Positions 5,050 to 54,600 of a stretch of DNA of 64,000 bases are shown piece by piece. This DNA is from an uncultured Prevotella sp. (GTDB lineage Bacteria > Bacteroidota > Bacteroidia > Bacteroidales > Bacteroidaceae). Numbering within the stretch: the first letter of the stretch is position 1; every line of letters begins with the position of its first letter. Location: positions 1 through 64,000 of the forward strand of contig OMZM01000008.1 in assembly GCA_900315545.1 (NCBI GenBank). The letters run 5' to 3'. The notes beneath the pieces are model-generated. The model was not told where the DNA came from. It saw nothing but the letters and a program-made list of their open reading frames with translations, and searched no databases. Position numbers and translations under genes: made by a program.

Positions 5050-5084
5050 GTTAACGTTAACGTTCTCGTTATCGTTAAGGTTAG
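5050..5084 (-). repeat. Degenerate hexamer repeat, inverse orientation to 3484-3543
   Basis: On the minus strand the bases read as hexamers TTAACG, ATAACG, AGAACG, TTAACG, TTAAC, the same NNAACG family as at 3484-3543. The two runs therefore flank the ung-DUF3109 pair in opposite orientations. This run lies just outside the dispersed element that begins at about 5092. Confidence 0.65.
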
Positions 5085-5091
5085 AAAAGGA

Positions 5092-5544
5092 TATAATCAA
5101 TTTTGAGGTCGTTTACTGTCGCGTGAGTGGCGGCGAAAGTCGTTTCTGAAATCTGAGGGGCAAAATATGCGAGTATTTTGAAGGTTGTTGTAATTGTCTG
5201 AGGGTCAGTTTGTTATCCCTAAATGTAAGTATTTTATGCAAGAAACACAAGTGTTAAAATTGTCAAAGAGCATGTTTGAGATTGTCAAACAGTGTGTTTG
5301 AGGCGGTCAGACATAGTGTTTGGGGGTATCGGACACTGTGTTTTGCAGGGCGAAAATGAAGAAATAGGTGCGTCAAAGGTACTCTTTGACAATTTTAACA
5401 GTTATCGCTGACTCGGAATTTAACGGATTTTTGCACTTTCAGGGGCTAAAATTTTTCTATTTGGAGAGTTTTTGTCTGTCAAAAGTTTTCATAATTTTCG
5501 TGGTCGGGAGGGAGGGCGCGAACACTTTGGCACGGTTTTTGCAG
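5092..5544 (-). repeat. Dispersed 450-bp non-coding element, copy A
   Basis: The reverse complement aligns over its whole length with copies at 33340, 41841 and 54020. Shared landmarks on the minus strand are GCAAAAA...GTGCCAAAGTG at the 5544 end, TTTTGACAGA, CCAAATAGAA, the seven-unit 22-bp core (5247-5400), TTTTGCCCCTCAGATTTCAG and CGCGACAGTAAAC near 5111, then ATTGATTATA at 5092. It lies in the convergent gap between the DUF3109 gene and the flavin oxidoreductase gene. Reading frames that cross it are not conserved between copies, so it is non-coding. Confidence 0.85.
5247..5400 (-). repeat. Seven tandem 22-bp units, core of copy A
   Basis: The core is exactly 154 bp, 7 x 22. The outer ends form a perfect 19-bp inverted repeat, 5252-5270 with 5382-5400 (arm CTCTTTGACAATTTTAACA). 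Inner units follow the pattern GTTTGAC-N4-TCAAACA-N4, each a near-palindrome. Confidence 0.85.
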
Positions 5545-16968: not shown

Positions 16969-17078
16969 TTGACATGCAACTTGTAATCCTTTTACAAGCT
17001 GCCTGTAATATCGTTACAGAGTATCTGTCACGCTGTTACGGAGTATCTGTCACGTTATTACAAGCCGTCTGTAAACTG
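16969..17078. repeat. Five tandem 22-bp units between ftsZ and fldA
   Basis: Units start at 16969, 16991, 17013, 17035 and 17057. All share a left TTACA-type half and a right CTGTAA- or CTGTCA-type half; the third and fourth differ at only two positions (GTTACRGAGTATCTGTCACG). Each unit is an imperfect dyad TTACA-N7-TGTAA. No spacers separate the units, so this is not a CRISPR. Apart from this array and the hairpin at 16843, nothing else was found in 16760-17180. Confidence 0.8.
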
Positions 17079-33339: not shown

Positions 33340-33770
33340 TGGAAAATGAGGAACCAAGTCAACGTCTGAAATGCTGAATTTATGAAAATTTTTGACAGAG
33401 AAAAAGTATCCAAATAGAATTTTTACAGCCTCTGAAACTGCTAATTTGTGTTAATTTTGAGGTCGGTTGTAATTGTTAAAATTGTCAAAGAGTACCTTTG
33501 AGGTGCCCATTTTGCATTTTCGGACTTGCGAAACATAGTGTTAGATACCCTCAAACACACTGTTTGGCATCCTCAAACACACTCTTTGACAATGTCAAAC
33601 ATGCTCTTTGACAATTTTAACACTCGTGTTTCCTGCACATATTGGCTGTATTTGTGGTTATCATGCTGACTGTCAGACGATTATAAATGTACGCAAAATA
33701 CTCGCATATTTGTGCGGAAAAAGTTTTCAGCGGCAAAATACGGCACTCACGCAGATGGTATCTCTTAATC
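33340..33770 (+). repeat. Dispersed 450-bp non-coding element, copy B (right flank diverged)
   Basis: Matches copies A, C and D from TATGAAAATTTTTGACAGAG (33381-33400) through CCAAATAGAAT, CCTCTGAAA, the 22-bp core (33474-33627) and CAAAATACTCGCATATTT. Beyond about 33715 the TTTCAGAAACGACTTTC segment kept by the other copies is replaced by diverged sequence. It lies in the divergent gap between mraZ and the glsA-like gene. The rest of the gap (33771-33953) shows only AT-rich sequence. Confidence 0.8.
33474..33627 (+). repeat. Seven tandem 22-bp units, core of copy B
   Basis: Exactly 154 bp. The 19-bp arms at 33474-33492 and 33604-33622 are perfect inverted repeats. Units 4-6 follow the TGTTTG-N6-CTCAAACA pattern with small changes. 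Confidence 0.85.
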
Positions 33771-41840: not shown

Positions 41841-42290
41841 CAGCAAAAAGTGTGCCAAAGTGAACAAGATTTTGTTTCGGGTCGAAAATGTATGAAAATT
41901 TTTGACAGAGAAAAAGTTGCAAAATAGATGCGGAATAGGCTCTGGAAGTGTGAATGTTTGTGAAAAATCGGCTCGGGGATAATTGTTAAAAATGTCAAAG
42001 AGTATCTTTGAGGCGGCTATTTCGTCTTTTTGTCCTGCAAAACACTGTGTCCGACTGCCCCAAACACTATGTTTGGCATCCTCAAACAGTGTGTTTGACA
42101 TTGTCAAACATGCTCTTTGACAATTTTAACACTTGCTTTTCCTGCACAAAAGATATGTGTTTGCTAATAACAAACTGACTGTCAGTATGTTGCGGATGCA
42201 CGCGAAATACGCGCGTATTTTGCCCCTCAGATTTCAGAAACGACTTTCTCGGGCATTCTCGCGACAGTAAACGGGCGAATATTGATTATA
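41841..42290 (+). repeat. Dispersed 450-bp non-coding element, copy C
   Basis: Begins CAGCAAAAAGTGTGCCAAA and ends ATTGATTATA, like copy D, and aligns along its whole length. Its right flank is nearly identical to copy D over TTTCAGAAACGACTTTC, CGGGCATTCTC and GCGACAGTAAA. It lies in the convergent gap between the five-domain surface protein gene and murF. Bases 42291-42400 show only a weak GACATG/CATGTC hairpin (42354-42374). Confidence 0.88.
41984..42136 (+). repeat. Seven tandem 22-bp units, core of copy C
   Basis: The core is 153 bp, one base shorter than the others because unit 3 has 21 bases. The arms at 41984-42002 and 42113-42131 pair with one mismatch. Confidence 0.85.
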
Positions 42291-53025: not shown

Positions 53026-53916
53026 TTATATGTTGTCATTGTTTTTGTTTTCGTTTCCCGTGCAGTTGCTTTGCCTTGTCAATTCGCAAATTTTCAAGGT
53101 TTCAACGGCTTCTTTCACGTCGTGAACGCGCAGAATGGCAGCGCCTTTCATCAGTGCTATGGTGTTCAGCGCCGTCGTTCCGTTGAGTGCATGGTCGGCG
53201 TCGGTGCCGAAAAGCCGTGAAATCATCGATTTTCGCGATATACCCACGAGCAGTGGCAGCTGCAGGACATGCAGTTTTTCCAAGTCTTTCATAATCTCAT
53301 AGTTTTCTTCGAGCGTCTTGCCGAAGCCGAAACCCGGATCGAAGATAATATCTTTCACTCCCATCTGGCGCAGCATCGACACCTCCTTTGCAGCGTTCAG
53401 CAGCATTGTCTGTATGTCGTTTCTGACAGACATCAGTATGTATGGCACTCCAAGTTCTGCAACTGTCCTGAATATAGCCGGTGTTTCGCTTTCCGACGGC
53501 TCGAGGCTGACGTTTGCAATGCCCGTTATTCCTCCCTCCGACACGTCGTTGATGATGTCAGCTCCATATTCCTCCACGCACATCCGCGCCACGTCGGGAC
53601 GGTAGGTGTCTACGCTGACTATTGCATTGGGCTGTTGCCGACGCACTATTTCCAGCCCCATGCGCATGCGCGCCATTTCCTCCTGCTCGCTCACCTCGTT
53701 GGCTCCGGGCCGCGTAGAGAATGCTCCGACGTCTATTATGTTGCCCCCTTCGCTGACGATAGCGTTGGCGCGTTCCGCTATTTCGTGTTCGCTCTGCTTT
53801 CGGCTGCCGCTGAAGAAAGAGTCGGGCGTAACGTTCAGTATGCCCATCACCATTGGCTTGTCGGTGCTGACGAGCCTGCCGCGAATGTTGATAAAACTGT
53901 TTCCTGTAGTCATCAT
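53026..53916 (-). CDS. folP: Dihydropteroate synthase
   Basis: Joins p-aminobenzoate and the pterin pyrophosphate in folate synthesis; target of sulfonamides. The 296-residue TIM-barrel protein shows MGILNVTPDSFFSGSR, IIDVGAFSTRPGA, IVSVDTYR, INDVS, FDPGFGFGKTLEENYEIM and VGISRKSMI. The GFGK and SRKSMI segments are the substrate loops. Two ATGs are in a row (53916 and 53913). It has an exact upstream promoter and heads folP-cdaA. Confidence 0.95.
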   Translation of the reverse strand: MMTTGNSFINIRGRLVSTDKPMVMGILNVTPDSFFSGSRKQSEHEIAERANAIVSEGGNIIDVGAFSTRPGANEVSEQEEMARMRMGLEIVRRQQPNAIVSVDTYRPDVARMCVEEYGADIINDVSEGGITGIANVSLEPSESETPAIFRTVAELGVPYILMSVRNDIQTMLLNAAKEVSMLRQMGVKDIIFDPGFGFGKTLEENYEIMKDLEKLHVLQLPLLVGISRKSMISRLFGTDADHALNGTTALNTIALMKGAAILRVHDVKEAVETLKICELTRQSNCTGNENKNNDNI

Positions 53917-53936
53917 GCTGATATTTATCTTTCATG

Positions 53937-53967
53937 CAAAGTTAGTTATTGTTATTCTAAGCACAAA
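53937..53967 (-). promoter_or_regulatory. Bacteroidetes-type promoter for folP-cdaA
   Basis: On the minus strand TTTG (53967-53964), a 19-bp spacer and TAACTTTG (53944-53937) match exactly. The predicted start is near 53930, 14 bases before the ATG. Confidence 0.8.
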
Positions 53968-54019
53968 ATAAAAAAACAAAAAAGTAGAGTTTGCCTGCAA
54001 TATTTTGTTTTTCCGCTCA

Positions 54020-54470
54020 CAGCAAAAAGTGTGCCAAACTCGTCAGGATTTTCTTTCTCGACGAAAAATGATGAAAAATTTTGACAGAGAAAAATCGTCC
54101 AAATAGAATCAGAATAGCCTCTGAAAGTGCAAAATACTGTTAAATTCCGAGTCGACGATAACTGTTAAAATTGTCAAAGAGTACCTTTGACGTGCCTATT
54201 TTGCCCTTTTTGCCCTATCAGACATAGCGTGCGAGACCCTCAAACACTATGTCTGACACCCTCAAACAGTGTGTTTGACAATCTCAAACATGCTCTTTGA
54301 CAATTTTAACACTTGTGTTTCTCGCATAAAACGCTTATATTTTGAGTTAATAAACTGATAGTCAGGGAATTATAGGACTATGCGGATTTTGGGCATATTT
54401 TGCCCCTTTGATTTCAGAAACGACTTTCTCGGGCATTCTCGCGACAGTAAATGAGCCAAAATTGATTATC
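54020..54470 (+). repeat. Dispersed 450-bp non-coding element, copy D
   Basis: Begins CAGCAAAAAGTGTGCCAAA and ends ATTGATTATC. Left flank landmarks are TTTTGACAGAGAAAAA, CCAAATAGAATC and CCTCTGAAAGTGC. The right flank has TTTGCCCCT, TTTCAGAAACGACTTTC and GCGACAGTAAA. It lies in the divergent gap between folP and the outer-membrane protein gene. The remaining bases to 54600 show nothing else certain. Confidence 0.88.
54163..54316 (+). repeat. Seven tandem 22-bp units, core of copy D
   Basis: Units start at 54163, 54185, 54207, 54229, 54251, 54273 and 54295, total 154 bp. Units 4-6 follow GTNTGA-N5-CTCAAACA-N3-T. The first and last carry the perfect 19-bp inverted arms (54163-54181 and 54293-54311). 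Confidence 0.87.
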
Positions 54471-54600
54471 ATTTTTTCGTGCCGGCAATGCTGTCTGACA
54501 GCAAGAATTGATGCTGAAATGTTAAAATATAATAAATAATATGTCTTTCGTGTAAACTTTTCGCCACCTCATACGTTTAATATACAAAACGATTACACCA

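What the first reader, a model, noticed from the sequence alone, without database searches (positions are those of the whole stretch)
54163..54316. Core of the element is seven 22-bp units in strict phase
In copy D units start every 22 bases for 154 bp. Cores in A and B are also exactly 154 bp, and C is 153. The first and last units carry a perfect 19-bp inverted repeat (CTCTTTGACAATTTTAACA; one mismatch in C), and inner units are dyads GTTTGA...TCAAACA. Units have diverged much more than the spacing. That suggests a protein binding on one face of the helix (22 bp is about two turns), or an RNA of stacked hairpins, rather than recent slippage.
Basis: partly seen in the sequence, partly recalled or inferred. 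Interest (0 to 1): 0.85.

Follow-up and report, generated by a model that had tools for sequence, protein, structure and literature searches.

The report
Phased 22-bp repeat arrays spacing chromosome
A bacterium of the order Bacteroidales carries well over a hundred copies of an intergenic DNA element whose core is a rigid row of seven 22-letter palindromic units, and these rows lie roughly every 12,000 letters along its contigs, which suggests DNA landmarks read by a protein rather than random junk repeats.

Summary
Confirmed and enlarged. The core (D, 54163-54311) is 149 bp between inverted 19-mers. It lies inside a dispersed 446-bp intergenic element, with about 137 pairs of core ends in the 2.29-Mb genome. 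Length is almost fixed: 97 of 101 cores are 148 or 149 bp, and 69 of the 72 elements with both ends readable are 445-446 bp, although cores differ by about 16%. Core ends are nearly invariant, also where the arms have decayed.

The dyads show no covariation, against stacked RNA hairpins. No terminal inverted repeat, no target duplication, no inversion of core against arms (96 of 96). A second core type, half-site TTACA instead of TCAAA, sits in the same arms, 22 bp shorter, and also occurs without arms.

Arrays are evenly spaced here: median gap 12 kb, 2 of 86 gaps under 6 kb against 35% expected. Four relatives, chosen because patterns had matched, carry arrays of other half-sites in the same 21-22-bp phase.

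Best reading: a protein-bound architectural array; protein unknown. Nearest known repeats: PINSR, BIMEs, BrickBuilt.

The parts
54023..54468 (+). copy D of the dispersed 446-bp element (CAAAAA...GATTA); arms plus core
   Evidence: left-end motif at 54023, total length 446, ends read, conserved across copies
54163..54311 (+). core of D: 149 bp, seven 22-bp phases, capped by inverted 19-mers
54163..54181 (+). left cap TGTTAAAATTGTCAAAGAG
   Evidence: nearly invariant across copies
54293..54311 (+). right cap CTCTTTGACAATTTTAACA
   Evidence: nearly invariant across copies
54023..54162 (+). left arm of D
54312..54468 (+). right arm of D
5094..5541 (-). copy A of the element, core 5252-5400; low end placed by eye at GATTA (448 bp)
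33474..33622 (+). copy B: core intact, outer halves of the arms at 0.33-0.38 identity to the consensus, inner halves 0.70-0.77
41844..42288 (+). copy C of the element (445 bp), core 41984-42131 (148 bp)
16970..17074 (.). free-standing array of the second half-site type (TTACA/TGTAA), five 22-bp units, no arm motif within its locus

Best explanation
The core is a double-stranded DNA signal: a fixed row of half-sites, alternately inverted and on average 11 bp apart, so that all face one side of the helix, capped at both ends by a variant half-site (TTTAACA). A dimeric or polymerising DNA-binding protein reads it. Arrays of this geometry, one per about 12 kb, mark the chromosome and probably serve its architecture (domains, looping or nucleoid organisation). 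In this species the array was captured by a dispersed 446-bp element that spread it; sampled relatives carry arrays with other half-site sequences and the same phase. SHOWN: fixed length, conserved half-sites and caps, absence of pairing covariation, two half-site types in one geometry, even spacing in this genome, the class in the sampled relatives. INFERRED: the protein, its binding to one helix face, and the architectural function.
For: Fixed length with diverged sequence. Tips: 278 matches genome-wide at up to three mismatches (control 8) and 274 at up to one with position 9 free (control 0), so decayed tips are nearly lacking; 98 of 101 fetched copies have at most one mismatch over both 16-bp tips; the six measurable of ten copies found through the left arm also have at most one mismatch per tip. 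Core kept where arms have decayed (B, L116, L117). No covariation. Second half-site type in the same arms at 423 or 424 bp, 22 bp shorter (6 of 9 measured). Even spacing: 2 of 86 gaps under 6 kb against 35% expected; CV 0.53 against 0.91, none of 2000 simulations as low. Nine armless TTACA arrays lie at least 7.6 kb from any element copy listed (p = 2e-5). Dyad arrays in relatives have period 22 in 16 of 17 (G335), 27 of 30 (G211) and 9 of 12 (G170); one shuffled version of each set gave none; 150 kb of E. coli K-12 gave none at 22. Density in G335 and G211 one per 9.1-11.8 kb, 67 of 71 intergenic.
Against: No binding protein was found or tested. Across families the dyad is kept while its sequence changes, which a hairpin or cruciform would also give. 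The four relatives were not drawn at random: a pattern or its reversed control had matched in them. G008 has mostly 21-bp arrays (11 of 17; 22 in 2). Spacing is not significantly even in G335 (CV 0.84, p 0.21) and only weakly so in G211 (p 0.03 and 0.01). In G211 arrays are enriched between convergent genes (14 of 34 against 7 of 64, p 0.0006), in G335 not significantly (p 0.15), which could mean a gene-end role. Several left units of the core are degenerate in the consensus. Most copies were found through the tips, so tip conservation is partly selected for. There is no clean 10.75-bp GC period as in gyrase sites.
Confidence: 0.45

Rival explanations
1. A selfish dispersed repeat of REP/BIME/PINSR type, moved by an unidentified enzyme. 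The array is the enzyme's recognition signal, and a target-immunity rule keeps new copies away from old ones, which produces the spacing.
For: 446-bp unit with defined ends in about 137 copies, essentially one species; truncated left-end fragments and one copy cut by an IS-like insertion in G005; no target duplication, as in IS200/IS605-type movers (recalled).
Against: Armless arrays of the other half-site type obey the same spacing. In the one other family aligned (G170, five copies) homology ends about 10-15 bp outside the array. No autonomous partner was seen, but none was searched for genome-wide.
Confidence: 0.3
2. Tandem operators of ordinary transcription regulators, each half-site type belonging to one regulator.
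For: Palindromic sites with conserved half-sites and variable centres.
Against: No promoter preference: 50 tandem, 31 divergent and 18 convergent gene pairs around 99 cores, background 34, 15 and 6. Fixed seven-unit length and even spacing are not expected of operators.
Confidence: 0.12
3. A transcribed stack of RNA hairpins (terminator, stabiliser or sRNA).
For: Four cores tried fold far better than shuffles (z -8.7 to -10.2); convergent-gene enrichment in G211; dyads kept across families with different sequences.
Against: No compensatory excess in tips or dyads of the 76 aligned cores; no Rfam family at its threshold in 53900-54600; no orientation preference in tandem gene pairs (21 same, 29 opposite).
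Confidence: 0.08
4. An ordinary minisatellite made by slippage, or an invertible switch flanked by the 19-bp inverted repeats.
For: 22-bp tandem period; inverted 19-mers around the segment; one linker exists in two mutually inverted forms, GTG in 54 and CAC in 21 of 76 copies, GTA in one.
Against: Unit number fixed in 97 of 101. All 96 copies that have a 148- or 149-bp core and could be oriented by their arms have the core the same way round.
Confidence: 0.04

Closest known systems
[quoted passage not shown] abstract, passages and section 3.4 read)
   [quoted passage not shown] similar copy number
   Different: Section 3.4 describes no 22-bp phase, no alternating half-sites and no even spacing. 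Its sequence is in a figure that is not held, so homology could not be tested.
BIME-2 / REP arrays of enterobacteria (PMC2817692 and PMC6379681, passages read)
   Same: Extragenic, high copy, regularly spaced palindromes in alternating orientation, proposed role in chromosome organisation, bound by gyrase in E. coli
   Different: Units here are 22 bp with half-sites on average 11 bp apart, the phase is exact, and several half-site sequences share it; no clean gyrase-like GC period was found.
BrickBuilt MITE of Porphyromonas gingivalis (PMC4596501; abstract, section 'Identification' and part 1 of 'Homology' read)
   Same: Intergenic dispersed element with leader and tail around a 23-nt tandem array, in another member of the order
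   Different: BrickBuilt units number 1 to 22.8 per copy and it has IS5-like terminal inverted repeats; here unit number is fixed, units are dyads, and no terminal inverted repeats or duplications were seen.

Membership tests
MITE (incl. BrickBuilt) | terminal inverted repeats | tested here: not met
   by inspection: ends CAAAAANNGTGCC... and ...AAAATTGATTA are not inverted copies
MITE (incl. BrickBuilt) | target-site duplication | tested here: not met
   72 copies: no fixed-offset direct repeat above permutations (k=4: 9 against a permuted maximum of 10); mean common substring 4.75 against 4.55, sd 0.11
BrickBuilt | variable number of tandem units | tested here: not met
   97 of 101 cores 148-149 bp
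PINSR | sequence similarity to the 188-bp consensus | not testable with these tools
   consensus only in a figure; record NC_017860 not in the collections
PINSR | intergenic, high copy, lineage-restricted, no terminal inverted repeats | tested here: met
   22 of 101 cores overlap a naive ORF call of at least 90 codons
REP/BIME | extragenic palindromes in alternating orientation, high copy | tested here: met
   a dyad plus a 22-bp period implies the second centre, so alternation is not independent evidence
REP/BIME | GTAG or CGTC tag and a REP-associated tyrosine transposase (RAYT) | not tested
   no genome-wide search was left for a transposase
strong gyrase site | about 10.75-bp periodic GC content over 130 bp (PMC6379681, passages) | tested here: inconclusive
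   GC autocorrelation at lag 11 is -0.16 in 97 type-1 cores and -0.27 to 0.05 in four other sets; at lags 10 and 12 it is positive in four of five sets (type 1 0.28 and 0.16, TTACA 0.11 and 0.07, G211 0.18 and 0.23, G170 0.20 and 0.20) and not in G335
invertible DNA switch | segment found in both orientations between its inverted repeats | tested here: not met
   96 of 96 scored copies have one orientation; five of the 101 (four of odd length, one without clear arms) were not scored
minisatellite | unit number varies between copies | tested here: not met

The most novel reading that the evidence does not exclude
A chromosome-spacing system of this genus: intergenic arrays in which only geometry is conserved (dyads in exact 22-bp, in one species 21-bp, phase) while the half-site sequence differs between and within genomes, placed about every 10-12 kb, each type read by its own member of a protein family that organises the chromosome.
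Probability: 0.35. Interest if true: 0.92.

Novelty: new variant of a known kind. Interest (0 to 1): 0.75.

Why it matters
Dispersed bacterial repeats such as PINSR still lack a function, and for BIMEs an organising role is proposed rather than proven. Here the repeats have a rigid measurable geometry, two sequence types that obey one spacing rule, and an exclusion zone of about 6 kb. That turns 'do bacterial dispersed repeats organise the chromosome?' into direct tests: pull down the protein, shift the phase, delete arrays and map contacts.

Tried and rejected
Rfam on 53900-54600: three matches, all far below their family thresholds. Plasmids: no match to 54050-54420. Viral contigs: no exact match to a three-dyad TTACA or TCAAA pattern or to a TTCCA pattern. 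Invertible switch, free slippage, target duplication and hairpin covariation were tested and rejected; the gyrase GC period is inconclusive. A fixed neighbour gene was looked for: DUF6078 flanks arrays in three species (Pfam), with a BT4734-like protein on the other side in one by Pfam and in a second by eye, and a tyrosine recombinase in a fourth, so no constant partner among the 20 loci looked at. Large gaps in G335 were checked for mobile DNA, ten proteins each: one holds two integrases and a VapE-like gene, one a Rep3 initiator, one only chromosomal-looking genes, so gaps are not simply mobile islands. Symmetry about the second centre is no independent evidence, because a dyad repeated at 22 bp implies it. 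Unit identity at half-sites is inflated because arrays were selected on it. Family clustering was too loose (single linkage) and is not used. Paper searches listed no description of such arrays; led to PINSR. Only the open library was searched, and most papers were seen as listings.

Full report
OBSERVATION. The inverted 19-mers are at the stated places in all four copies, with 0.04 matches expected by chance against 8 found. The core is 149 bp in A, B and D and 148 in C. Clear TCAAA-7-TTTGA dyads fill the right-hand part of the core and the first linker; the second to fourth head dyads from the left are degenerate.

THE WHOLE ELEMENT. Comparison of copies shows homology well beyond the core. 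With both ends recognised in 72 of 96 oriented copies (24 dropped because an end failed my six-mismatch limit), the distance CAAAAA...GATTA is 446 in 53, 445 in 16, 447 in 2 and 406 in 1. The genome has 141 + 137 tip matches at up to three mismatches (control 4 + 4) and 138 + 136 at up to one mismatch with position 9 free (control 0), so about 137 pairs. It is essentially one species: 10 of 399 genomes of the genus have a tip match; besides this one only G005 shows more of the element, cut by an IS-like insertion; in the other eight the 350 bp printed show no further part of it, by inspection. One contig of a Bacteroidales assembly, RUG13423, holds two copies with 149-bp cores. The genus was not told; Prevotella is my inference.

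FIXED LENGTH. Of 101 paired cores, 77 are 149 bp and 20 are 148; the others are 145, 163, 184 and 480. Mean pairwise identity of 76 aligned 149-bp cores is 83.5%, range 72-98.

WHAT IS CONSERVED. Both 16-bp tips are perfect in 66 of 101 copies; 32 have one mismatch in total and 3 have two. Some copies with decayed arms keep the core and tips: B (outer halves 0.33-0.38), L117 (outer halves 0.28-0.36) and L116, which in the orientation that fits its core has 0.32, 0.33, 0.51 and 0.37 over the four half-arms. Copies were mostly found through the tips, so this is partly selected; but six of ten copies found through the left arm could be measured and have at most one mismatch per tip, and tips with two or three mismatches are nearly lacking genome-wide.

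DNA, NOT HAIRPIN. Over the tip stem and twelve dyads of 76 copies, compensated double changes number 20 against 19.9 expected from independence, with 821 one-sided changes (sums over the lines). Tip position 9 and its mirror 141 vary between T and A independently (48, 18, 8 and 2 copies). One linker is GTG in 54, CAC in 21 and GTA in one of 76; a symmetric site would not feel this flip. All 96 scored copies have the core in one orientation to the arms.

A SECOND CORE TYPE. Nine elements have the same arms around a core with half-site TTACA in the same 5-7-5-5 geometry. The six that could be measured are 423 or 424 bp, one 22-bp unit shorter. Arrays of this type also occur without arms, one of them in the window at 16970-17074; 11 such loci were checked and none has the arms, one holding a single short motif match (L241). 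Copies of the first type show no context preference: 50 tandem, 31 divergent, 18 convergent of 99 with both neighbours, background 34, 15 and 6; 22 of 101 cores overlap a naive ORF call of at least 90 codons.

SPACING. Coordinates of 111 element copies on 25 of 56 contigs (lists in part truncated by the tool, which thins the set and works against regularity) give 86 gaps, median 12.0 kb. Two are under 6 kb; uniform placement gives 35%. CV is 0.53 against 0.91 with sd 0.08, and none of 2000 simulations was as low. Nine armless TTACA arrays lie 7.6-17.1 kb from the nearest listed element copy, p = 2e-5 for the minimum and 0.002 for the mean; they are those the tool listed, not all. The null is uniform on contigs, not restricted to intergenic DNA.

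THE CLASS IN THE GENUS. A two-unit TTACA pattern occurs in 31 of 399 genomes of the genus including this one, with no control match in the listing, but only in this one of 393 genomes sampled across the order. The TCAAA pattern occurs in two of 399. Its reversed control, which spells half-site ACAAACT, matched ten genomes, three of them with 29-54 matches per strand. Stretches of four relatives with such matches were scanned for dyad arrays of any sequence and any period from 15 to 40: period 22 in 16 of 17 arrays of G335, 27 of 30 of G211 and 9 of 12 of G170; G008 has 21 in 11 of 17 and 22 in 2; window 5 of 5; one shuffled version of each, none. In 554,634 bases of the own genome, mostly chosen around copies, 124 of 127 have period 22. 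In 150 kb of E. coli K-12 one array of period 24 was found. Several half-site sequences coexist in one genome by inspection. G170 has a family of three units in five of five copies, whose homology ends about 10-15 bp outside the array. Under looser thresholds density is one array per 9.1 to 11.8 kb and 67 of 71 are intergenic.

RESULTS AGAINST. Spacing is not significantly even in G335 (p 0.21) and only weakly in G211 (0.03, 0.01). G211 arrays favour convergent gene pairs (p 0.0006), G335 not significantly. Retention of the dyad with changing sequence across families is what a hairpin would also show. GC autocorrelation is not positive at lag 11 in four of five sets, though positive at 10 and 12 in four of five, so gyrase wrapping is neither supported nor excluded. 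No partner protein.

COMPARISON. PINSR (PMC4755523, section 3.4 and passages read) is the closest described repeat: intergenic, 177 and 184 copies, lineage-specific, no terminal inverted repeats, function unknown. Its sequence could not be compared. BIMEs share alternating palindromes and a proposed architectural role (passages). BrickBuilt shares the plan of arms around an array, but varies in unit number and has IS-like ends. I therefore call this a new variant of a known kind; I found no description of the exact phase shared by several sequences or of the spacing rule (searches listed under Tried and rejected).

Noticed in passing
window 5050-5083 and flanks of several copies (L037, L061, L069, L040, L056, L092): Degenerate hexanucleotide runs of the form GTTNNC lie directly beside the element in about 7 copies, by eye.
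   Followed up: no
L070 2023-2502: A truncated copy and a full copy lie head on, giving a 480-bp tip-to-tip distance.
   Followed up: partly
core positions 107-109 of the alignment: Linker present as GTG (54 copies) or its exact inverse CAC (21), GTA once, and similar flips at 85-87: looks like local inversion between short inverted repeats.
   Followed up: partly
L220 (G314) about 1917-1977: Array with a further half-site, TTCCA/TGGAA, in the same 22-bp phase, near a TTACA pair.
   Followed up: no
L230 (G211), L234 (G282), L235 (G280): A DUF6078 gene lies beside the array in three species, with a BT4734-like protein on the other side in L234 and, by eye, L235.
   Followed up: partly
L228 (G146) 353-1468: A tyrosine recombinase (Phage_int_SAM_5, Phage_integrase) lies beside an array.
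   Followed up: no
G008 stretches L277-L292: This species has mainly 21-bp dyad arrays of several sequences, e.g. around TTTGCTAGCAAA.
   Followed up: partly
L072 about 1456-1630 (G005): The one further partial copy among 399 genomes of the genus is truncated in its first unit by an IS-like insertion with a transposase-like frame.
   Followed up: partly
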